A stretch of 28,818 nucleotides of DNA. Origin: a virus. The notes beneath the pieces were generated by a model, which saw nothing but the letters and a program-made list of their open reading frames with translations, ran no database searches and was not told where the DNA came from. The stretch lies in the IMG/VR virus record IMGVR_UViG_3300025898_000029, positions 1 to 28,818 of that record; one strand, 5' to 3'. Shown piece after piece: positions 2,974 to 26,577 of the stretch; positions within the stretch are counted from its first letter, which is position 1; each line of letters opens with the position of its first letter. The translations under genes and the position numbers were made by a program.

Positions 2974-4914
2974 TTACAGGATCGGCGCCGTTGCGAGCAC
3001 GCGGACGTTGACGAACCATTCGACGGTCATGGCGGTGTCGCCGGTGACGTAGAGCACTGCATTTTGGCCCTGCGCCACCAGGTTGCCGGTCCAGTTGCTG
3101 TCGCTCACCGAGTTATAGACGCCATGATCGGCGCTCAGTCCCGACGCGGTATTGTTGAGAAGGCCGATACTGACCGTGCCCTGGGTCAGCGCCGCCGCCG
3201 CCAGCGCGCTGCCGCCCTGGGAATCGGTGATGACTTCGCCGGTTTGGAAACTTCCATTCGGGCCAAGCGTCACATCTTGCAGCGTGAGGGTGCCGCTCGA
3301 TCCCCCGGCGGCGACGGCGATGATGCGTCCCGTTGCACCGCTGGCCTGCCCGGTGACCACGCTTCCGGCGGCGAAGGCGCTCAGTGGGGTGTTGTATGTC
3401 AGCAACGCGCCGCTGCAAGACACGGCCCACATTGCCTTGAACCAGGCATTATCGAGCGACGTGCGGGAGCGCGCAACGATGGTCGCCTCAAGAAGTGCGT
3501 GCTGCCCGGACTGAAGCAGCATTTCCCAGACCGGAAACTGCGAGTTGTTGGTGGTTACGCCGACCGAATAGCCGTCGCGGGTCGTGAAGCTCGACACCCA
3601 GGCTTGGGCAGTGCCGGCAAACTTGACGCCGCCGATGATGCGGCAGTCTTGCGCCACAACATTGTAACCCGGGTTGGTGATGGTGATCGTCTCGTTGGTG
3701 AATTCGGAGCGACGGAAGGCGACGTTCTGCAGCGTTCCTTTGAGGTTGATGGCCGCACCGTTTGCCCCGGTGCCGATAAAGGACGCATCCTGACACTCAA
3801 AGCCGATGGCAGTGTTGCTCTGCGCGGCGTTGAGCGGGGTGCCGTCCTCGAGCTGCAGATCTGTGGTGTTGCCGTTCCAACTGCAGCTCTTGAGCAGCGT
3901 CGCGCTTGCGCCGAGTGCATGAAACGCGATGCCGATATTGTTGAAAAACCGCAAATTGGCAAAGCTCAAATGATCGCACGGCTTGTCCACGTTGGCGATT
4001 TCGATGCCGGCGATCGAGCAGGTGTCGATCTGGCCGCCGTCCCAGCGGCCGAATTCGAGCGCGCCGCCATTGCCGTTGTCGGTATAGCCGTGGCCCTGAA
4101 ATCCGGTCAGACAATCGGAAATATAGACTTCGCGCCAGCCGTACTGGCCGCCGCCGATGAGCTGGATGCCGGTGGCGAAGCGCTGCACCAGGACATTGTC
4201 GAGAATGACGCCGGTCATCACCTCGGCATAAAGCCCGATCGAGCCGTTGGCCTGATTGAGCCCGTCGATCGACAGGTTCTTCAGCCCGGCCTGGCTGCCT
4301 CCGATAGTCACCACGTTGCCGGCAAAGGTCAATTGCAAGGTGGTGGCGTCGCGCCCCTGCCCGCTCAACGTCACGTTCTGCGGCAGCGTGATGGACGTGA
4401 ATGGAAACACGCCATCGGGAAGCTCGATGGTCCCGCCGCCGGCGCCAGCGGCGTCGCCGATCGCCGCATCGAGCGTGTTGGTGTTCGTCGTTGCCGACGC
4501 GCCGGTCTGCCCCACGGCCAAAAAAACGCCGAAGTCGAGCACATTGAGCTGCCGCGCCAGAATGTCGGCAAGCTTGTTGCCGACAAGCGCGCCGGTGGGG
4601 AGCACCGTGGCCTGCGACGCATCCTGTCCCACAAGCGTGGTCAGCGGCGGCGTGATGACGCCGGTGCGATCGACGCTGTTGATGCTCAAGCTGTAGGGCT
4701 GACCGGTGTAGAGCGGCACCGCGAACTTGCCGTAAGTGTTGCCTTGCGGGTCGGTCTTCGCGATCAGCGTTTGCGGATTGGATGCCGGCTGGGTCAATGC
4801 CTGATCGGTGAAGACCGCAGCAGGTGTTTGCGTGTCGCCGACATTAACTTGGACGGTCGCGAGCGCGTAGCCCTGCTGCCACGTGTCGAATTCGGCGATC
4901 AAAACGGAAGGCAT
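2974..4914 (-). CDS. Tailspike with pectate-lyase-type beta-helix
   Basis: A 646-residue receptor-binding spike candidate. Residues about 1-110 form a head-binding-like N-terminal region. From about 125 the chain has the start of a pectate-lyase-3-type right-handed beta-helix (VLDFGVF, then a GGGTIELPDGVF block and LSGQGRDATTLQL), followed by repeated short beta turns with Asn/Asp/Gly ladders to about residue 430. A later module around 515-580 (SVVTGQASGATGRIIAV, then GEVITDSQGGSA) matches a small repeat-type domain common in phage structural proteins. Such spikes bind and often cleave surface polysaccharide outside the cell; catalytic residues cannot be assigned by eye. A strong GGGGAG ribosome binding site lies six bases before ATG 4914. 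Confidence 0.85.
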   Translation of the reverse strand: MPSVLIAEFDTWQQGYALATVQVNVGDTQTPAAVFTDQALTQPASNPQTLIAKTDPQGNTYGKFAVPLYTGQPYSLSINSVDRTGVITPPLTTLVGQDASQATVLPTGALVGNKLADILARQLNVLDFGVFLAVGQTGASATTNTNTLDAAIGDAAGAGGGTIELPDGVFPFTSITLPQNVTLSGQGRDATTLQLTFAGNVVTIGGSQAGLKNLSIDGLNQANGSIGLYAEVMTGVILDNVLVQRFATGIQLIGGGQYGWREVYISDCLTGFQGHGYTDNGNGGALEFGRWDGGQIDTCSIAGIEIANVDKPCDHLSFANLRFFNNIGIAFHALGASATLLKSCSWNGNTTDLQLEDGTPLNAAQSNTAIGFECQDASFIGTGANGAAINLKGTLQNVAFRRSEFTNETITITNPGYNVVAQDCRIIGGVKFAGTAQAWVSSFTTRDGYSVGVTTNNSQFPVWEMLLQSGQHALLEATIVARSRTSLDNAWFKAMWAVSCSGALLTYNTPLSAFAAGSVVTGQASGATGRIIAVAAGGSSGTLTLQDVTLGPNGSFQTGEVITDSQGGSALAAAALTQGTVSIGLLNNTASGLSADHGVYNSVSDSNWTGNLVAQGQNAVLYVTGDTAMTVEWFVNVRVLATAPIL

Positions 4915-6149: not shown

Positions 6150-6620
6150 ATGACCGCAGGTGAGCGAAAAGGCAGGCTTGTTGCGATCAAGTTTGTCTGG
6201 CGCACTAAACAGGGACACGCTATGTGGCGCTTCCGTTGCGATTGCGGCGGAACGATTGTTGCCAGAGTGGGCGCCGTGCGGTCCGGCAACACTGTTTCCT
6301 GCGGGTGCCAGAAAATCGAGAGCGCGACGCGGCATGGAATGTCACGATCGGCCGAATATCGCGCGTGGAGCGCAATGCTTGATCGGTGCTACAATCCGAA
6401 GAACAAGGCCTTTCCCAACTACGGCGGTCGTGGAATAAAAGTCATCGCTCGATGGCACGAATTCAAAAACTTCTTCTCTGACATCGGGCCTCGACCGCGA
6501 GGCTTAACATTAGAGCGGCTCGACAACGAGCGGGGTTATTCGAAGAAAAACTGCGTCTGGGCAAATTGGTCCACGCAGGCGCGGAATCGGCGTAAGCCGA
6601 TTAGACGTGGTCGTTCTTAA
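6150..6620 (+). CDS. HNH/AP2-type putative homing endonuclease
   Basis: A 156-residue protein and the only convincing plus-strand gene. The N-terminal half has paired cysteines CDCG (30, 32) and SCGC (51, 53), a likely zinc site. The C-terminal half carries a signature common in phage HNH- or AP2-like endonucleases: EYRAWSAMLDRCYNP, YGGRGIKV, RWHEFKNF, LERLDNERGYSKKNC and a final QARNRR. Such proteins are usually selfish DNA-cutting genes. Catalytic residues are not certain by eye. The gene has its own extended -10 promoter and lies between spanin and lysozyme genes, converging on the lysozyme 3' end with 20 shared bases. The DNA looks less GC-rich than its neighbours. An upstream in-frame GTG at 6114 would add 12 residues (AYKSPRRRRVL). 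Confidence 0.85.
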   Translation: MTAGERKGRLVAIKFVWRTKQGHAMWRFRCDCGGTIVARVGAVRSGNTVSCGCQKIESATRHGMSRSAEYRAWSAMLDRCYNPKNKAFPNYGGRGIKVIARWHEFKNFFSDIGPRPRGLTLERLDNERGYSKKNCVWANWSTQARNRRKPIRRGRS

Positions 6621-13894: not shown

Positions 13895-15022
13895 TTACTG
13901 CGCGGCGGCGGTCTTGAGCGCGATGCAGCCAAAGTCCTGCCGCGTCGGGTTCAAGCTGCCGTCGAGATCGTAGAGCGACAGGAACTGCGGTTTGAGCATC
14001 CCGAGCTTGCGACCGACGCCGATGCCGGGCCGGTTGCCGTAGTCGGTAAGCACCGCTTCGCGCCAGAACATCGAGCCGATGGTGGCGATCGCGCCGGCTT
14101 GTGCGCCGAGCAGCATCGCCTGCGCACCATCCACGGTGCCGCCGGCGCCCCACTTCGAGCCCGACGCCATTCCGGTGGTGTTGAACACCTTGTTGTGGTG
14201 ATGGATCACGGTATTGCCGATCGTCACCGACGCGCCGGTGAACAGCGGGTTCTTGCTCGAGCGCTTCTCGGCCGACCGCACGATGGTCTGGTAGGTCGGG
14301 TCGAGCTGCAGATCGCGCCATTGCGGCTCGCTCATCAGCAGCACGTAGTAATTGCGCCCGCCGTCGCGGATCGGCCGCAGCCGCTTGGTGGCGGCAAACG
14401 ACGTCGTCGACACCACCGTCGCCCAATTCATGGTGTTGGACGTGGTGACGGTGGCTTCGCTGGTCGCCGTGCCGGCAAACTTGATGCGGTTCGAGGACGG
14501 CGCCACCACATCGGCGGCGAACGTCAACGCCGGCAACTGGCTGTTGGTCCGGGTCGCCCCGTTATAGGTGAGCGAGTAGGACCGGCCCGAGAGCGTGAGA
14601 AACATCAGCTCGTCGAGCTTGTCGGAGAGCCAGAAGGTGAGCTTGTCCTTCGACTGCATGCGGAACCGGATGACGGTCGCCTGCTCGGCCATCTCGCCCT
14701 TCGACTTGTTGCCGTTGCGCAACTGATCGATGCGGATGGTCTGGCTGTCGTTTTGCAGGGCCTCTTCGTTGCCCTCCAATTCGTTGTCGCCGACAACGCC
14801 GTCCGATTGCATGTCGAGCACGAGCTGCATCACGCACTCGAAGCCGCGTTCGGTCTCGGTGAGCTTCGTCACACGCTGGATGACGGAGTTCATGTCGTTG
14901 TCGTTCTTGCCAATAAAGCCATTGGCAAAGAAGAACGATTGATCGCGGCCGTTCTTCCAAAGCTCGGCCGCCCAGACGATTTTCTTCGCGGCGCTCAGAG
15001 CGCCGAAGTCGGTTACTGCCAC
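13895..15022 (-). CDS. Major capsid protein, N4-gp56/DUF4043 type
   Basis: A 375-residue coat protein of the N4-gp56/DUF4043 capsid group (HK97-type fold in that family). Recognisable parts are the N-terminal AKKIVWAAELWKNGRDQSFF and GFIGKNDNDMNSVIQRVTKL, then MQSDGVVGDNELEGNEEALQ and QTIRIDQLRNGNKSKG, all typical of this group. Further along are the FRMQSKDKLTFWLSDKLDEL helix and a C-terminal LTDYGNRPGIGVGRKLGM. It builds the head shell around the scaffold, with the portal at one vertex. The start is GTG 15022 with AAGGTG upstream. The scaffold gene is just upstream and a hairpin terminator just downstream, as expected for a highly expressed gene. The mixture with a P22-like portal is common in podoviruses. 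Confidence 0.9.
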   Translation of the reverse strand: MAVTDFGALSAAKKIVWAAELWKNGRDQSFFFANGFIGKNDNDMNSVIQRVTKLTETERGFECVMQLVLDMQSDGVVGDNELEGNEEALQNDSQTIRIDQLRNGNKSKGEMAEQATVIRFRMQSKDKLTFWLSDKLDELMFLTLSGRSYSLTYNGATRTNSQLPALTFAADVVAPSSNRIKFAGTATSEATVTTSNTMNWATVVSTTSFAATKRLRPIRDGGRNYYVLLMSEPQWRDLQLDPTYQTIVRSAEKRSSKNPLFTGASVTIGNTVIHHHNKVFNTTGMASGSKWGAGGTVDGAQAMLLGAQAGAIATIGSMFWREAVLTDYGNRPGIGVGRKLGMLKPQFLSLYDLDGSLNPTRQDFGCIALKTAAAQ

Positions 15023-17461: not shown

Positions 17462-19498
17462 TCACTGCGTAAATGGCGTGACGTCGGCCGCGACCGGCCC
17501 GCGCCCGAGCGGACCCGGCGTTTCCTGGTGCGGGCTCGGCATACCGCCGTGCGGCGCATGGTGCGCGGGCTTGTGATGGGCGATGGCGCGCTGCGGCTGT
17601 TGGCCGTGCTGCTGTTGCTGTTGCTGTTGCTGCTGCGCCTGCGCATTGGCCTGCCACATCGCCTTGATGCGCTCGATCCACTCGTCCTTGCGCGGCATCG
17701 ACGACGCGTCGATCAGCAAGTCCGCGGCCATCGGCAGATAAGGCCCGATCGCCGGCCCGAGCTTCTCCAGAAGCATCAGCATTTCTTCGAACTGCGCGTG
17801 CAGGAACGTGTCCGACAGCGGCGCGTCGTCGATGACCACGGCATATTTGCCGATCGTCACGTCGTTGTTGATCGCCGCCAGCCCCGATGTCGGGTCCTGC
17901 ATTTCCTGGTTCAAATGGACCTGGGAGAAGTGGCCGTTCTTCCCCATGATCCGGTAGATGCGCGGCTCGGTGTACCAGCCTTGAATGATGCGCAGGTGCG
18001 AGGCGCCCAGCAGCATCTTCGAGCGCTTGAAGTTGTCCATATAGGTCTGGATCGCCAGCACCGCCTGGCGCTGCTTGGCCTGCAGCGCGCGACCGGATTG
18101 CACGTTGAGTTCCTGACCCAGCGCCGCCTCGTTGATGCCGGCGATGGCCTTGATGTCCTGATCGGCGTCGTCCTCGAGCTGCTTGTGCGCTTGCGCGGTG
18201 CCGCCGGGCACGATCTGCTCGGGCTTCTGTGCTCCCGCCTTGTAGACGATGTTGACGCCGGGCGATGAGCCGTACTTCTTCATCGCCCGCTCTTGGTGCG
18301 GGGTGAAGGTTTGGTCGGTATACGTCCAGCCGCCGTTGGCGAGCTTGCCGGCAATCTCGATGCGCGAATTGCGCCGCTTGTTCTTCTCCTGCTGCGGATC
18401 GACCAAATCCTCCACCATGCCGCGGGTGATGCCGCGGCGGAAATAGGGGAAATATCCGGTCTTGGTGTAGCCCTCGTAGTAGGACGGCTTGTCGTAGAGC
18501 AACAGATCGCCGGCGAACGTCGTCCACTGGATGCGCTCGACGGTGCGGCGCTGGATTTTTACCGGGGTGCCGACTTGCTCGGCGTAGAGCATGATCTTCT
18601 GCAGCTCGTTGGTGCCCCAATGATCGGGCAGCACTTCGCGGTCGCCGGTCTCAAGATCGATGGCGACGTTGCGCGGCTCTTTCACCTTCCACTGCATGTC
18701 GATCAGGCGGATGGTGCGCCGCGATGTATCGACGAAATCGCCGACCAGCGAATAGAAGCTGTCCCACCAGGCGTCCTCGACGTCCTCGCGGGAACCGAAG
18801 GTGCGCACCGGGCTGATCTCGTCGGTCACGATCATCGACGAGATCGGCGCCAGCGGCGTCTGCCCGAGCACGAACGGCCGCAACAGCGACATCGCGTCCT
18901 TGCCGAACGTCGCCTCGATCTCATCGAGCGAGACGTAACGGCTCTCGCACATGAAGTTGGCCGATTCGTCGAGGTTGTAGGCGTCGGCGTCGGGATCGGG
19001 ATAGACCGCGAAAGGATCGCTGGCGCTTGTGTTGATCTCGCCGAATTCATTGCTCTCGAAGCTCAACCGGGTGTCGTACCAGCCGCGGCCGGTGAGAAGC
19101 CCATCGAGAAACACTTCGGTGTCGACGTAATCGAGATGCGAGCCGGTGGCGATCACCTTCTCGACGTCGCTCAACGCGGTGGCGACCGTCTCGGCCGAGC
19201 GCATGTCCTGGCCGGGCTTGAAGGTGATGTCGGTCTTGTTGGCGCGGTGATAGCCGAGCACCAGCCGCACCAGCGGCGCGATGATGTTGAACTTGAAGTG
19301 CGGCCGGCGCTGGCGGCGCAATTCCGCTTTCGCCGCTTCCGCCCACTGCCGGCCCTCGAAGAAATCGACACACACCTTCGCCGGCTCCGCCCAGCGCAGT
19401 TGCGCATAGGCCGCGCGCTGCCACTTTTCGGCCAATAGCAGGACCTTCGCGGGATCCTGCTTGGGCAGCCGCTTTGGGGGGACGGGACCGAATTTCAT
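17462..19498 (-). CDS. P22-like portal protein
   Basis: A 678-residue portal, close to the length of P22 gp1 (725). It forms the 12-fold ring at one capsid vertex through which DNA is packaged and ejected. Family-like features are an N-terminal helical part with PHFKFNIIAPLVRLVLGYHRANKTDI, then DGLLTGRGWYDTRL, DPFAVYPDPDADAYNLDES and the central KTGYFPYFRRGI region. Also seen are the crown/wing segment EDDADQDIKAIAGINEAALG and a C-terminal helix before a Gln run (QQQQQQQQQ, about residue 640) and a His/Pro-rich tail. P22-type portals end in a long barrel helix; here a Gln-rich end takes its place. No good ribosome binding site is seen before ATG 19498. Confidence 0.9.
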   Translation of the reverse strand: MKFGPVPPKRLPKQDPAKVLLLAEKWQRAAYAQLRWAEPAKVCVDFFEGRQWAEAAKAELRRQRRPHFKFNIIAPLVRLVLGYHRANKTDITFKPGQDMRSAETVATALSDVEKVIATGSHLDYVDTEVFLDGLLTGRGWYDTRLSFESNEFGEINTSASDPFAVYPDPDADAYNLDESANFMCESRYVSLDEIEATFGKDAMSLLRPFVLGQTPLAPISSMIVTDEISPVRTFGSREDVEDAWWDSFYSLVGDFVDTSRRTIRLIDMQWKVKEPRNVAIDLETGDREVLPDHWGTNELQKIMLYAEQVGTPVKIQRRTVERIQWTTFAGDLLLYDKPSYYEGYTKTGYFPYFRRGITRGMVEDLVDPQQEKNKRRNSRIEIAGKLANGGWTYTDQTFTPHQERAMKKYGSSPGVNIVYKAGAQKPEQIVPGGTAQAHKQLEDDADQDIKAIAGINEAALGQELNVQSGRALQAKQRQAVLAIQTYMDNFKRSKMLLGASHLRIIQGWYTEPRIYRIMGKNGHFSQVHLNQEMQDPTSGLAAINNDVTIGKYAVVIDDAPLSDTFLHAQFEEMLMLLEKLGPAIGPYLPMAADLLIDASSMPRKDEWIERIKAMWQANAQAQQQQQQQQQHGQQPQRAIAHHKPAHHAPHGGMPSPHQETPGPLGRGPVAADVTPFTQ

Positions 19499-21951: not shown

Positions 21952-23577
21952 TTAGCTGGCCATAAAGTCGCCGCCGGCCGCTTCGTCTTCGATGTCCTGC
22001 ATCCACTTCGGGGTTTGCAGCTCAAGCGGCTCGGGGAAGATGACGGAAAGTTCGGGGTCGAGAATGCGGCTCATGCCATCGAGCATGTCCTCGTGGCTGA
22101 GCACCGGGAACGGCTTGTATTCCTCGTTCAAAAACACCTGCACCAGATTGAGCGTGTGTTTTTCAGAGACCGTGGTGTAGAGAATGCCGGCCTCGGGCAA
22201 GAGCATCCGGCCCTGCTCGAAGACCGGGATCAGCCGCTTGATGCGGTCGATCTTTTTCAGCGAACCGGCGAGCGGGGTGATGCCGAACCGATAGTTGGTC
22301 TGCGCCATCACGTATTGCATGTGCTCGATGTCCGCCTGCAGGCCGTACTCCTCGTAGCCGACATTGAGCGGGCGCCACTTACGGTGCAGGTAGAACAGCG
22401 CTTTCGTGCGCTCGGTGAGGTTCAGCCGATCGCGGATCGCGTCGCAGACGTAATAGTGCTCATCGCCGCCGGTGCCGATCACCCACATCGTGGTGTAGTC
22501 GCTGGTCGGCTTCTTCTTCGAAGCCGGATCGACCACGATGTAATGGTTGAGCCCGGTGAAGTTTTGCCCCGGCCAGTATTTGATCCACTTTTCGTTGAAG
22601 CCTTGCGCCTTGTCCGCTGTCGGATTGAGCAGCATTTGTGCTCCGAAGGTGTAAGGCCCTTGCAGCCGGCGCTTTTCGGCTAGGAACTCGGCCGAGCGCA
22701 GCACCGACTTCGACCAATCCTCTGAGCCGTCCGACGTGCAGGGATGAATGCGAGCCGGGATTCCGCGCTCCATCATCACCGAATAGGTATCGAATAGGTG
22801 GTAGCGGCTGCCCTGAAATCGCGTCCAGCCGCCCTCGGTCCCAAGATTGTCCGACAGCTCCCACGCCTCGGTGGTCTTGTGGATCATTTCCGGCGTGGTG
22901 ACGCTGCGGTCGGTCACCGTGTCGTCGTAGTCGCGAATGAAAAAGTGCTTGCCGATGGGCTGGCCGTCGACCAAGCCCCAGGCCTCGATCGTCGCCTCTT
23001 TCGGGTTGGTCTTGCGCTTGACGATCAGCCCGTCGTCTTCCGACCACTTCGGCGCCTCGTTTTCCGGATTGGCCCACAGCACGTCTGGGAAGATCGCCTT
23101 CAGGTCCTCGTTATTCTCGCACTCACGCTTGATCTGCCGCAGAAAGCCCTTGGCGCTCGGCCGCGTATGCGAGAATAGCCCGATGGTGACTTCGCGGCCG
23201 TTATAGCGCGGCTCGGGATCCTCACCGTGGCTCGCCAGCACATCCTGCAGCGACAGCCCGAAGGTGATGATCGTGGACTTGTAGTGCTCACGCGCCCACA
23301 GGTCCAAATAGCCGTTCGGCGCCGCCCCTACTTCCCGGCAGCGCTCGAACAGCCAATCATGATTGATGTCGCGCCGCTTGCAGGCGGCGGTGAGCAGATA
23401 AAATAGATCATTGCGGATCAGCTTCCGCTTCGCCCGGCGCAAATCCTCCGGTGACCGGGCCGAAGCTGTCGTCAGGATGCGGACGTACCACTGGATCGTT
23501 TCGAGCCGGTTCTTCGGCAGCTCCAGGCGGAACATCGGCCAGGACAGCGGCAGCGCCGAAGATGGCTGCGAGTTCAT
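21952..23577 (-). CDS. Terminase large subunit (packaging ATPase-nuclease)
   Basis: This 541-residue protein drives DNA into the head and cuts the concatemer. The ATPase domain has a phage-type Walker A, LWAREHYKST (93-102, Lys100), and a Walker B-like FFIRDYDDTVT (212-222, Asp218/Asp219). The nuclease domain has the RNase H-type acidic residues expected of terminases: Asp350 (HYIVVDPAS), Glu409 or Glu410 (VGYEEYG) and Asp497/Asp500 (SHEDMLDGMSRIL). The ATG at 23577 has a strong GAGG ribosome binding site and lies inside the small-subunit gene, giving a 170-base overlap. ATG 23535 is an alternative start. It belongs with the DUF2280-type small subunit just upstream. Confidence 0.95.
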   Translation of the reverse strand: MNSQPSSALPLSWPMFRLELPKNRLETIQWYVRILTTASARSPEDLRRAKRKLIRNDLFYLLTAACKRRDINHDWLFERCREVGAAPNGYLDLWAREHYKSTIITFGLSLQDVLASHGEDPEPRYNGREVTIGLFSHTRPSAKGFLRQIKRECENNEDLKAIFPDVLWANPENEAPKWSEDDGLIVKRKTNPKEATIEAWGLVDGQPIGKHFFIRDYDDTVTDRSVTTPEMIHKTTEAWELSDNLGTEGGWTRFQGSRYHLFDTYSVMMERGIPARIHPCTSDGSEDWSKSVLRSAEFLAEKRRLQGPYTFGAQMLLNPTADKAQGFNEKWIKYWPGQNFTGLNHYIVVDPASKKKPTSDYTTMWVIGTGGDEHYYVCDAIRDRLNLTERTKALFYLHRKWRPLNVGYEEYGLQADIEHMQYVMAQTNYRFGITPLAGSLKKIDRIKRLIPVFEQGRMLLPEAGILYTTVSEKHTLNLVQVFLNEEYKPFPVLSHEDMLDGMSRILDPELSVIFPEPLELQTPKWMQDIEDEAAGGDFMAS

Positions 23578-24031
23578 CCTTCACCTCGGTAGGGGTTTGC
23601 GGCGCCACGGGCTGTGTCTGGATCGGCTTGCCGCCAGGCCCTGACAATTCGCGCCGATTGGTGAAGAAGCCGCCGACTTCTTTTGCGGCCTGCTCGGCGA
23701 GTTCCTTCGCCATGCCCATGTTGCCGAGCGCCTCGGCCTTGCTGGCCATGCGATCGAGCATGCGCAGCCGATAAACCTGCGACGCAATGCCGATCGCCGC
23801 GGTGTCGGCGAGATAGAGCTTGCGCGCCTCCTCGAACAGCGCCTTGAGCTCCGGTGATAGCGCCTTGCCCGCGACCTTGGTCGGGTCGTAAGCCTCGACC
23901 CGCTGGCGGGTGACGTCGATCCCGAAGTCTGCCTTGACGGTCGCGGCTACCTCTGAGGGGGTGTCCCAGCACGCCAGCTTCGAGACGATAAAGCGTTTGA
24001 TCTCGTCGGCGAGTTCGTCGGGAGCAGCCAT
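23408..24031 (-). CDS. Terminase small subunit, DUF2280 type
   Basis: A 207-residue protein matching the DUF2280 pattern: an N-terminal helix-turn-helix-like part (DELADEIKRFIVSKLACWDT, PSEVAATVKADFGIDVTRQR, VEAYDPTKVAGKAL), then helical segments with YLADTAAIGIASQVYRLRML. In phage context this family lies directly before the large terminase and is taken as the DNA-recognising small subunit. The C-terminal 55 residues are Pro/Ala-rich and acidic and are encoded in the overlap with the large subunit gene. The start ATG 24031 has no strong ribosome binding site; the metallopeptidase gene ends 14 bases before. Confidence 0.85.
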   Translation of the reverse strand: MAAPDELADEIKRFIVSKLACWDTPSEVAATVKADFGIDVTRQRVEAYDPTKVAGKALSPELKALFEEARKLYLADTAAIGIASQVYRLRMLDRMASKAEALGNMGMAKELAEQAAKEVGGFFTNRRELSGPGGKPIQTQPVAPQTPTEVKDELAAIFGAAAVLADVPPGAAEEPARNDPVVRPHPDDSFGPVTGGFAPGEAEADPQ

Positions 24032-24045
24032 CGGTCAAGGCCGGG

Positions 24046-24666
24046 TCAATGTCGCGCGTGACAGGTGCCGCAGGCGCCGCGGATGAATTCGGGATCGACC
24101 GTCGGGATCTCCGCAGCCGCCGCGACCATCGCCGCCACATCGGCCGAAACCGCTCCGTACCGCTTCACCACCCCGATAAACTCCTCAACGTCATGGCCGC
24201 GCATGGTGAAAACCGGGATGCCGGTATCGCCGGCGAATTTCGGCTGCCCGAATTCGTCCTTGGCCTGGCCGCAGTGATAAAGCTCGTGCTCGACCAGCGC
24301 GCAGAACTCGGCGTCGCTTGCCTGCGCCGCGTACTCAGCGTCGAACGTCAACAGGAAATCCAGGTCGCCGCCGAACCATCCGAGGAGTTGCGATTGCGCT
24401 CTTGCCCGCGCCCACTTCCCCATCGAGCCACCCGGCGGCTTGAACTCGGCTTGCCCGACGATGATCCGGCCGTGCCGGCTGTTGCGCACGCCGGCCCACA
24501 ACACTCCGATCCGCGCACTGATTAAATGACCGTGATCCGGGTTGGCGAGACCGCCGCTGTCCTGGATGAACGTCGCCGTGATCCACTCCAGCATGTCCGG
24601 CGCCGGCGCGAACATCGGGCCGTGGATCGTGCGCGCCACGATCTCTGCTGGCGGCTGCGGGCGCAT
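24046..24666 (-). CDS. Phage zinc metallopeptidase-like protein
   Basis: A 206-residue protein with an HELYH zinc-peptidase motif (ALVEHELYHCGQ, His127-Glu128 and His131) and an Arg-Gly-His-Asp-Val-Glu-Glu segment around 157-162 that may supply the third ligand. This fits the putative phage metallopeptidase family often found beside terminase genes. The end, CGTCHARH, holds two Cys and two His in a knuckle-like spacing and could bind a second metal. Two start codons are possible: ATG 24672 and ATG 24666. The second is preferred because GAAGG lies six bases before it. It follows the terminator of the basic-protein cassette and precedes the terminase pair. The substrate is unknown. Confidence 0.85.
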   Translation of the reverse strand: MRPQPPAEIVARTIHGPMFAPAPDMLEWITATFIQDSGGLANPDHGHLISARIGVLWAGVRNSRHGRIIVGQAEFKPPGGSMGKWARARAQSQLLGWFGGDLDFLLTFDAEYAAQASDAEFCALVEHELYHCGQAKDEFGQPKFAGDTGIPVFTMRGHDVEEFIGVVKRYGAVSADVAAMVAAAAEIPTVDPEFIRGACGTCHARH

Positions 24667-24682
24667 CGGCATCCTTCAAAGC

Positions 24683-24711
24683 GAAAGGCCCGGCTGCGAA
24701 CCGGGCCTTTC
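24683..24711 (-). terminator. Intrinsic terminator of the basic-protein cassette
   Basis: GAAAGGCCCGG (24683-24693) and CCGGGCCTTTC (24701-24711) form a perfect 11-bp hairpin with a 7-base loop. In the minus transcript it ends UUUCGCUUU, so the U-tract is broken. It separates the 45-residue basic gene from the metallopeptidase and terminase genes. Confidence 0.75.
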
Positions 24712-24741
24712 TGTACGCGGTCTGCGAAGCCAGAGCTCTTC

Positions 24742-24879
24742 TTACGCCGTGGCCGCCCGCTTGCGCATCGTGCTCGAGCTGCGCTTGGTGCGAGCCCGTG
24801 CCGCGCGCGGCGTGGTACGGCGGTTGCGCGCGCTCGACGAGCGGCGCGAACGGGAAGATGTACGACGTGGTGACGACAT
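24742..24879 (-). CDS. Arg/Ser-rich protamine-like 45-residue protein
   Basis: A 45-residue protein made almost only of Arg, Ser, Ala and Thr: RRTSSRSRRSSSARNRRTTP, then RAARARTKRSSSTMRKRAAT. It has no acidic residue and about 14 Arg/Lys. It is too short for usual gene finding, yet it has a perfect GGAGG ribosome binding site six bases before ATG 24879, an isolated leader and a terminator after its TAA. Composition resembles protamines, histone H1 tails and small basic phage or bacterial nucleoid proteins; DNA or RNA binding is inferred. Possible roles are DNA condensation in the head, host nucleoid change or regulation. A chance Arg-rich open frame is possible in GC-rich DNA, but the control signals argue against this. 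Confidence 0.75.
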   Translation of the reverse strand: MSSPRRTSSRSRRSSSARNRRTTPRAARARTKRSSSTMRKRAATA

Positions 24880-24893
24880 TATTGCCTCCATCG

Positions 24894-24908
24894 CCCGAAT
24901 GATTCGGG
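24894..24908. promoter_or_regulatory. Operator-like palindrome CCCGAAT-G-ATTCGGG
   Basis: A perfect 7+1+7 inverted repeat lies between the predicted -10 box and the ribosome binding site of the basic-protein gene. With a start of transcription near 24911 it would cover about +3 to +17, a classic repressor site. A hairpin role in the leader RNA is the other option. Confidence 0.5.
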
Positions 24909-24917
24909 GTAATGTCG

Positions 24918-24946
24918 GCTATACAGCGCCGCTGGATGAAAGTGAA
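24918..24946 (-). promoter_or_regulatory. Possible promoter of the basic-protein cassette
   Basis: On the minus strand TTCACT (24946-24941) and TATAGC (24923-24918) are separated by exactly 17 bases. Each matches the sigma-70 consensus in four of six positions. The site lies in the 78-base gap upstream of the gene. The match is modest, so it is supported mainly by the palindrome and terminator around it. Confidence 0.4.
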
Positions 24947-24957
24947 TCCCTTTTGCG

Positions 24958-25206
24958 CTATGCGTGGCCGCCGTGCCCCAAAAGCGCACCCAGGTCGAGC
25001 GCCTCACCGTCCTCGCGTCGCTGACCGCGTTTGAGCAACAGCGCCTTTGTAATCGACACGCCGAGAGGAGCAAACTCGCACTCTGTGCCTTGAACGATCG
25101 CCGGGAGCGTCGCCATGGGATCGTCCACGTATGATAGCCGCACCTCACTGCCGGCCTTCACTGCCCCATCGAGCGAGAGGATCACAATGAAATTGGGCTT
25201 CGCCAT
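24958..25206 (-). CDS. Small hypothetical protein
   Basis: An 82-residue protein, MAKPNFIVILSLDGAVKAGS onward, with an alternating hydrophobic N-terminal strand region and a basic patch (LLLKRGQRRED) followed by an acidic Leu-rich end. An in-frame upstream start at 25269 lies inside other genes; ATG 25206 is preferred because it begins one base after the stop of the acidic mini-protein. No family is recognised. It is the last gene before the basic-protein cassette. Confidence 0.65.
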   Translation of the reverse strand: MAKPNFIVILSLDGAVKAGSEVRLSYVDDPMATLPAIVQGTECEFAPLGVSITKALLLKRGQRREDGEALDLGALLGHGGHA

Positions 25207-25207
25207 T

Positions 25208-25315
25208 TCAATCCTCGTTGTCCAGTTCCGGCATGTCGTCCGGCTCGCCGCAGGGATCGTCGCGGGCAATGTCGTACTCGTCGTCGTCGAGCGGATCAGG
25301 CGCGCAGTCGGGCAT
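25208..25315 (-). CDS. Very acidic 35-residue mini-protein
   Basis: A 35-residue protein with 16 Asp/Glu (PDPLDDDEYDIARDDPCGEP), two Cys and no basic patch except one Arg. An AAGG site lies about nine bases before ATG 25315, which overlaps the previous gene by 20 bases. The next gene begins one base after its stop. No function is known. Strongly acidic short phage proteins sometimes act as DNA mimics or anti-defence factors, but this is only a possibility here. The open frame continues upstream in the shadow of the neighbouring gene, so the start is not certain. Confidence 0.5.
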   Translation of the reverse strand: MPDCAPDPLDDDEYDIARDDPCGEPDDMPELDNED

Positions 25316-25682: not shown

Positions 25683-25946
25683 TCAGCACACTGGATCGGC
25701 CCACGCGGGCGGAAACTCTTGCAGCAACACGTCGCGCACCGCGCCGCTGCGGAAAGCGTCCTCTGGAAACAGGAGAGTGCGCCGCTCGGCATTGGCGAAG
25801 CGCTGGTACGACAAGATGTAGCGGCGCTCAGCCCCATCAAAGCTGCAGGCGAAGGACTTTGGATCGACACCCGCGTTGGCCCGGACCGCTGCGAAGACCG
25901 CTTCCTTCCGAAGCTGTATGCAGCCCATTTGCAATCGAGCGCTCAC
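25683..25946 (-). CDS. Small hypothetical protein coupled to upstream gene
   Basis: An 87-residue protein starting at GTG 25946, which overlaps the stop of the previous gene (GTGA). A nearby internal ATG at 25928 is an alternative start. The sequence (EAVFAAVRANAGVDPKSFAC, SFDGAERRYILSYQRFANAE, then LLFPEDAFRSGAVRDVLLQE) looks like a compact alpha/beta protein. No family is recognised. The following 186 bases (25497-25682) hold no supported gene; a 19-codon frame with a weak GAGG site was judged too short to call. Confidence 0.65.
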   Translation of the reverse strand: MSARLQMGCIQLRKEAVFAAVRANAGVDPKSFACSFDGAERRYILSYQRFANAERRTLLFPEDAFRSGAVRDVLLQEFPPAWADPVC

Positions 25947-26407
25947 TTGCCCCTCGGCAAATAAACCCGCGGCTCGACATGGCCGGATGACGCCACCATG
26001 GCGCCATTGACCACCGACAGCCAGCGGCCGTGATGCTTGTTCGGCTCGGTGCTCGAGCGGATCGTCGCCAGAATGATCTCCGGCGGCTTGCCCTTGCCGA
26101 CCACGGCGCAGAAGTTGATGGCGCTCTGAAAGCACTCCTCGGCGGAGCCGTTGGTGATCTGCACAAAGCCGCGGATGACCTTGACGCCAAAACCGTGCGG
26201 GCCGGACGAGACGAACGGCGCCCACAGCTTCGGCAACAGGAAGCCCATGCGCACTTCGGGACACCATCGCGTCGGATAGCGCTTGGCGTATTGCACGTTA
26301 AGCGCATCGAGCCGCTCGATAAGCGGACGCTTCGGCGATTGACGCCGATCGGTCTTGCGGTTGGTGATCCACTCACCGTCCCGCTGATGGAGGGCGCGGC
26401 CGCTCAT
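25943..26407 (-). CDS. Hypothetical phage protein
   Basis: A 154-residue protein with a basic N-terminal part (ITNRKTDRRQSPKRPLIERL) and a later globular region with MGFLLPKLWAPFVSSGPHGF, KVIRGFVQITNGSAEECFQS, and IRSSTEPNKHHGRWLSVVNG. ATG 26407 is preferred because GGGGAG lies nine bases before it. The open frame extends to 26563, but that extra part is a run of stem-loops and lacks protein-like composition. No domain is recognised. It is coupled to the 87-residue gene by a GTGA overlap. Confidence 0.65.
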   Translation of the reverse strand: MSGRALHQRDGEWITNRKTDRRQSPKRPLIERLDALNVQYAKRYPTRWCPEVRMGFLLPKLWAPFVSSGPHGFGVKVIRGFVQITNGSAEECFQSAINFCAVVGKGKPPEIILATIRSSTEPNKHHGRWLSVVNGAMVASSGHVEPRVYLPRGK

Positions 26408-26433
26408 TAGCTTACGCTCCCCGATCATTTGAT

Positions 26434-26577
26434 GCGCGTCCCGGTCCCGGCTCGGACGACTGACAGAGCCAGACGCAACCAGGACCGGGAACGCGCGAAG
26501 CGCAGTGAGGTGCGCTAGACCTGATCCCCACTTACAGCGCTGCTGGAAATAGATGCGCTGCATCGGTTAACGGGGAT
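26434..26577 (-). ncRNA. Candidate structured RNA: three adjacent stem-loops
   Basis: Three consecutive hairpins tile this stretch with only 2- and 7-base linkers. Hairpin A pairs GCGCGTCCCGGTCC (26434-26447) with GGACCGGGAACGCGC (26482-26496), one base bulged, and contains an inner GGCTC/GAGCC stem (26449-26453, 26466-26470). Hairpin B is AGCGCA/TGCGCT with a 6-base loop (26499-26516). Hairpin C has an outer ATCCCC/GGGGAT pair (26524-26529, 26572-26577) around CAGCGC/GCGCTG (26535-26540, 26555-26560). No known RNA family is recognised. Strand is assumed from the genes. It may be a leader of the 154-residue gene or an independent RNA. Confidence 0.45.

What the first reader, a model, noticed from the sequence alone, without database searches (positions are those of the whole stretch)
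24683..24946. Self-contained cassette for a protamine-like Arg/Ser-rich mini-protein
Seen: promoter-like boxes with 17-base spacing, a perfect 15-bp palindrome just after the expected start of transcription, a GGAGG ribosome binding site, a 45-residue protein almost entirely of Arg, Ser, Ala and Thr, and a perfect 11-bp terminator hairpin. This is the layout of a morphon: a separately regulated phage gene. Inferred: the product binds nucleic acid, perhaps compacting phage DNA, altering the host nucleoid or regulating packaging, because the next genes are metallopeptidase and terminase. The gene is short enough to be missed by standard annotation.
Basis: partly seen in the sequence, partly recalled or inferred. 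Interest (0 to 1): 0.7.

Follow-up and report, generated by a model that had tools for sequence, protein, structure and literature searches.

The report
Conserved cationic mini-gene in a phage
A phage carries a real but easily missed gene for a 45-residue, almost purely positively charged protein just before its DNA-packaging genes; it is conserved as protein in one relative, probably binds DNA or RNA, and is a modest new example of a small accessory phage gene.

Summary
On the minus strand of this 28.8-kb phage contig, 24742-24879 encodes a 45-aa peptide (14 Arg, 2 Lys, 11 Ser, no Asp/Glu; net +16) with GGAGG 5 nt before the ATG and a perfect 11-bp hairpin after the stop. It is very probably a real gene: one relative (L002) has the same frame (43 aa) at the same place, GGAGG and hairpin conserved; 11 of 15 substitutions are at third codon positions, dN/dS is about 0.12, the only indel inside is 6 nt, permutation p about 0.0003. 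The palindrome is at chance level (six such in the window) and not conserved. The promoter is weak (8/12), but a 29-bp block there is conserved (27/29). The hairpin ends 16 nt before the metallopeptidase start, at the edge of the packaging operon. Two more distant relatives lack the cassette between the same flanking genes; one has an unrelated Lys-rich 27-aa frame plus terminator upstream. No family, PDB or Rfam match. Most likely an accessory (moron-like) nucleic-acid-binding mini-protein; whether it condenses DNA, is packaged, or regulates transcription is untested. New member of a known kind, moderate interest.

The parts
24742..24879 (-). 45-aa Arg/Ser-rich ORF, MSSPRRTSSRSRRSSSARNRRTTPRAARARTKRSSSTMRKRAATA (net +16). 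The upstream ATG at 24891 is not conserved in L002, so this ATG is taken as the start
   Evidence: ortholog L002:782-913; dN/dS ~0.12 and permutation p ~0.0003
24885..24889 (-). GGAGG ribosome binding site, 5 nt before the ATG
   Evidence: same sequence and spacing in L002
24922..24950 (-). 29-bp conserved block GGGATTCACTTTCATCCAGCGGCGCTGTA (27/29 identical in L002, flanks diverged) holding the promoter-like -35; promoter pair TTCACT-17-TATAGC at 24946..24918
24894..24908 (.). 15-bp odd palindrome CCCGAATCATTCGGG in the 5' leader; chance-level, sequence not conserved (L002 has a different hairpin with a 5-bp stem there)
24683..24711 (-). Perfect 11-bp hairpin with 7-nt loop, weak U-tract: terminator or attenuator, conserved in L002 (9-bp stem)
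24046..24666 (-). Phage metallopeptidase (PF18894); conserved start 24666, 16 nt after the hairpin; first gene of the packaging/head module
23408..24031 (-). DUF2280 protein (PF10045) between metallopeptidase and terminase large subunit
21952..23577 (-). Terminase large subunit (phrog_38)
25208..25315 (-). 35-aa very acidic ORF MPDCAPDPLDDDEYDIARDDPCGEPDDMPELDNED (net -15), overlapping the end of the preceding 66-aa ORF; also in L002 (36 aa, net -16)
   Evidence: codon test inconclusive (p 0.11-0.13)
24958..25206 (-). 82-aa ORF present in the window but absent from L002 between the acidic ORF and the cassette: indel turnover right at the cassette's upstream edge

Best explanation
A real accessory (moron-like) phage gene: a promoter-like block, a 45-codon gene and a hairpin inserted at the junction between the small-gene region and the packaging/head operon. 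Shown: the frame is under purifying selection as protein, with conserved RBS and hairpin, and the cassette is absent between the same flanking genes in more distant relatives. Inferred: the product, with 16 positive and no negative residues, binds DNA or RNA mainly by charge, as Arg/Ser-rich protamine-like peptides do, perhaps through its near-invariant C-terminal half (weakly modelled as a helix); and it is made together with or just before the packaging genes, because the metallopeptidase gene starts 16 nt after the hairpin and must be read through it unless transcribed from within.
For: Ortholog in L002 at the same place, 86% identical amino acids, 11/15 differences at codon position 3, dN/dS ~0.12, permutation p 0.0004 and 0.00025, one 6-nt in-frame indel inside the frame versus several 1-2-nt indels in the leader and 3' untranslated part; the two long opposite-strand frames are interrupted by stops in L002. 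GGAGG, promoter-containing block and hairpin conserved. Same flanking genes without the cassette in L004 and L005. L005 carries an analogous +12, 27-aa Lys-rich ORF followed by an 11-bp terminator; among RBS-bearing ORFs of 20-75 aa followed by a hairpin in about 110 related loci, only the window, L002 and L005 are this cationic. Arg/Ser-rich peptides of like composition shift lambda DNA non-specifically, and baculovirus P6.9 is an Arg/Ser-rich DNA condenser (PMC6163548).
Against: Only two orthologs known, so the codon test rests on 15 substitutions. No binding, expression or virion data. Near-invariance of the C-terminal 26 residues (one change) is more than bulk charge alone needs. The hairpin's U-tract is weak and the promoter match poor, so an independent transcription unit is not proven.
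Confidence: 0.6

Rival explanations
1. Late-gene regulator or leader: the peptide is an arginine-rich RNA-binding antiterminator (working like lambda N), or the ORF and hairpin form an attenuator leader of the packaging operon. Transcripts starting upstream meet the hairpin, and the peptide or its translation lets polymerase pass into the metallopeptidase-terminase genes.
For: The hairpin ends 16 nt before the metallopeptidase ATG, leaving no room for another promoter in between. The stretch from stop to hairpin is also conserved. C-terminal half near-invariant and weakly modelled as a helix.
Against: No RNA-box or Nus-type element identified; no Rfam or protein-family match. Most relatives have no such gene directly before the metallopeptidase. 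A late promoter inside or downstream of the metallopeptidase gene cannot be excluded.
Confidence: 0.2
2. Packaged virion protein: the peptide enters the head with the DNA and neutralises charge there, a true phage protamine.
For: Composition like baculovirus P6.9 (PMC6163548); position directly before packaging genes.
Against: Position is not function; tailed phages generally package DNA without protamines (own knowledge); the gene is rare among phages sharing this packaging module.
Confidence: 0.1
3. Chance Arg-rich frame in GC-rich DNA, or a non-coding RNA whose conservation only looks like coding.
For: GC-rich DNA yields many Arg/Ser/Ala-rich shadow frames; the 3' part folds better than shuffles.
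Against: Codon-position pattern, low dN/dS, in-frame indel, conserved GGAGG and start, interruption of the long opposite-strand frames; no Rfam family.
Confidence: 0.05

Closest known systems
Morons of tailed phages (PMC6316719)
   Same: Small gene with promoter-like and terminator-like signals, found in few genomes, absent between the same flanking genes in relatives, product under 100 aa
   Different: Promoter weak and untested; terminator U-tract weak; lies directly before the packaging operon, which it may influence
Baculovirus P6.9 and other viral protamine-like proteins (PMC6163548)
   Same: Short, Arg/Ser-rich, strongly positive
   Different: No homology shown; phage, not insect virus; no evidence of packaging, phosphorylation or DNA condensation
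Arginine-rich-motif antiterminators such as lambda N (own knowledge)
   Same: Short basic peptide gene near a terminator upstream of regulated genes
   Different: No boxB-like or Nus elements found; no recognisable NusA- or polymerase-binding part; not homologous
L005 mini-gene MATKAKSRAASKKSATKRSRVKITKRK + 11-bp terminator (found here)
   Same: Tiny, purely cationic, ends at a strong hairpin, lies upstream of the same packaging module
   Different: Lys-rich, 27 aa, about 950 bp upstream of the metallopeptidase, no sequence homology, no relative of its own found

Membership tests
Moron (independent transcription unit added to a phage genome) | Own promoter | tested here: inconclusive
   TTCACT-17-TATAGC, 8/12, overlapping a 29-bp block conserved in L002; 22 sites of 8 or more in the window
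Moron (independent transcription unit added to a phage genome) | Factor-independent terminator after the gene | tested here: inconclusive
   Perfect 11-bp hairpin, conserved, but tail UUUCGCUUU
Moron (independent transcription unit added to a phage genome) | Absent between the same neighbours in related phages | tested here: met
   Homologs of the 206-aa gene and the metallopeptidase are adjacent in L005 and separated by two other small genes in L004, without the cassette
Protamine-like DNA-condensing protein | Short, Arg-rich, no acidic residues | tested here: met
   14 R, 2 K, 0 D/E in 45 aa; pI 12
Protamine-like DNA-condensing protein | Condenses DNA and is part of virion or chromatin | not testable with these tools
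   needs gel shift, microscopy, virion proteomics
Protamine-like DNA-condensing protein | Sequence match to a known protamine or histone-like family | tested here: not met
   no match in Pfam, PHROGs, NCBIfam, PDB
Arginine-rich-motif antiterminator | Cognate RNA box and antitermination activity | not tested
   no box sought beyond Rfam; activity needs experiment

The most novel reading that the evidence does not exclude
A peptide-controlled switch: a 45-aa arginine-rich peptide, encoded between a promoter and the hairpin in front of the packaging operon, opens that hairpin (or compacts the DNA for packaging), and is balanced by the acidic 35-aa neighbour of almost equal opposite charge (-15 against +16).
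Probability: 0.08. Interest if true: 0.7.

Novelty: new member of a known kind. Interest (0 to 1): 0.38.

Why it matters
It shows that very small, low-complexity, highly charged phage genes can be real and selected yet invisible to standard similarity searches (a tblastn-confirmed search failed to recover even the 86% identical ortholog). If the product binds nucleic acid at the packaging-operon boundary, it would be a simple testable case of a protamine-like or antiterminator-like peptide in a tailed phage.

Tried and rejected
Peptide search with tblastn confirmation in viral contigs and tblastn in phage records found nothing, but the method also misses the known ortholog, so this is not evidence of absence. 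DNA patterns for TTPRAARAR and KRSSSTMRKRAAT found only L002 as a true match, the other 44 hits of the first being unrelated frames. Searches of 15 prophage-bearing genomes, 385 genomes of the same class and 50 related viral records found only L002 convincingly; hits at E 0.002-0.005 in two records were not followed. The pattern of the L005 mini-gene occurs only in L005; that of the acidic ORF, apart from the window, only in L002. A search for more relatives through the 206-aa gene found none. Palindrome as operator rejected as chance. Start at 24891 rejected: ATG not conserved. AlphaFold model (two sequences, pLDDT 72, pTM 0.37) suggests a C-terminal helix but is too weak to interpret. Eight annotated phages with the same module carry no comparable small cationic gene in the stretch read; one chance-like 23-aa frame in phiPSA1 was set aside. 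Literature searches turned up no protamine-like protein of a tailed phage in the library held.

Full report
What the window is. The window is an IMG/VR virus record of 28,818 bases. Its minus strand carries a head and packaging module: phage metallopeptidase PF18894 (24046-24666), DUF2280 protein (23408-24031), terminase large subunit (21952-23577), P22-like portal (17462-19498) and a capsid protein (13895-15022). The metallopeptidase-DUF2280-terminase part occurs in alphaproteobacterial prophages and in Rhizobium, Burkholderia, Pseudomonas and other phages.

The observation. All the elements are there: promoter-like TTCACT-17-TATAGC, a 15-bp palindrome, GGAGG with 5-nt spacing, a 45-aa frame, and an 11-bp hairpin. 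The frame has the highest [RKSTA] fraction of 365 ORF starts of similar size in the window and of 16,528 in control loci. The palindrome is one of six of its kind in the window and so unremarkable. The promoter is 8 of 12; 22 sites that good or better, itself included, occur in the window on both strands.

Is it a gene? A close relative, L002 (IMGVR_UViG_3300043252_000017), has the same frame at the same position: MAPRSSSRSRRSPSARSRRTTPRAARARSKRSSSTMRKRAATA. GGAGG and its spacing are identical. Over 39 aligned codons there are 15 substitutions, 11 at third positions; dN 0.05, dS 0.41. Random placement of the same substitutions gives as many third-position changes in 0.04% of trials and as few amino acid changes in 0.025%. 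The only indel inside the frame is 6 nt; the leader and the 3' untranslated part have 1- and 2-nt indels. The two long opposite-strand frames (24526-24873, 24542-25024) have stops in L002. The limit is that only two sequences exist.

Regulatory parts. A 29-bp block just upstream (24922-24950), overlapping the promoter pair, is 27/29 identical in L002 between diverged sequences, which supports a promoter or binding site there. The leader of L002 folds into a different hairpin that is no better than shuffles, so the palindrome's sequence is not conserved. The 3' hairpin is conserved (11 bp in the window, 9 bp in L002) but its U-tract is poor. It ends 16 nt before the metallopeptidase start; there is no room for a promoter in between, so the metallopeptidase and whatever is cotranscribed with it must be read through the hairpin unless transcribed from further inside. 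This is inference from layout.

Synteny. The upstream gene 25943-26563 has homologs in L004 (45% identity) and L005 (39%). In L005 it overlaps the metallopeptidase start; in L004 two other small genes separate them. The cassette is thus an addition in a variable slot. Even between the window and L002 the slot changes: an 82-aa ORF is present only in the window. L005 has, upstream of this slot, a 27-aa Lys-rich frame (+12) followed by an 11-bp terminator. In about 110 related loci, the window, L002 and L005 are the only cases of a strongly cationic RBS-bearing small frame followed by such a hairpin. This suggests, without proving, independent use of cationic mini-proteins at this boundary.

Function. 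No family, PDB or Rfam match exists. Charge +16 without any acidic residue makes nucleic-acid binding likely: Arg/Ser peptides of similar make-up shift lambda DNA without specificity, and P6.9 condenses baculovirus DNA (PMC6163548). The C-terminal 26 residues differ by one T-to-S change only while synonymous sites diverge by about 0.4; that constraint is more than bulk charge needs and leaves room for a more specific role such as RNA-binding regulation. I place a nucleic-acid-binding accessory protein first (0.6), a regulator of the packaging operon second (0.2), a virion protamine third (0.1) and a non-coding or chance reading last (0.05).

Acidic neighbour. Upstream, overlapping the end of a 66-aa ORF with only a weak match to an HTH family (E 0.018), a 35-aa frame of net -15 is also present in L002 with net -16. 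The charge match with the +16 product is curious; its codon test is inconclusive because few substitutions fall there, and nothing else ties the two together.

Comparison with the known. By layout it works like a moron (PMC6316719), with the 'absent in relatives' feature met and the promoter and terminator features inconclusive. By composition it resembles protamine-like proteins, without homology and with no binding test. It is best filed as a new small accessory phage gene, ordinary in kind and uncertain in role.

Noticed in passing
window 25208-25315 (-): 35-aa extremely acidic ORF (12 D, 4 E, net -15), also in L002, start overlapping the preceding ORF; its charge nearly mirrors that of the basic product.
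   Followed up: partly
L005 2961-3044 (+), hairpin about 3051-3080: 27-aa purely cationic Lys-rich ORF followed by a strong 11-bp terminator upstream of the same packaging module.
   Followed up: partly
window about 6150-6620 (+): Frame on the opposite strand to the structural genes, with CDCGG..CGCQ and HGMSRSAEYRAW..CYNPKNKAFPNYGGRGI stretches, looking like a homing-endonuclease type insertion; no Pfam match.
   Followed up: partly
window 24958-25206 (-): 82-aa ORF present in the window, absent from L002 at the same junction: recent gain or loss.
   Followed up: no
window 24046-24666 (-): phrog_513 and many phage records call this protein 'transposase' although it matches the phage metallopeptidase family PF18894 strongly: a likely annotation error that spreads.
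   Followed up: no
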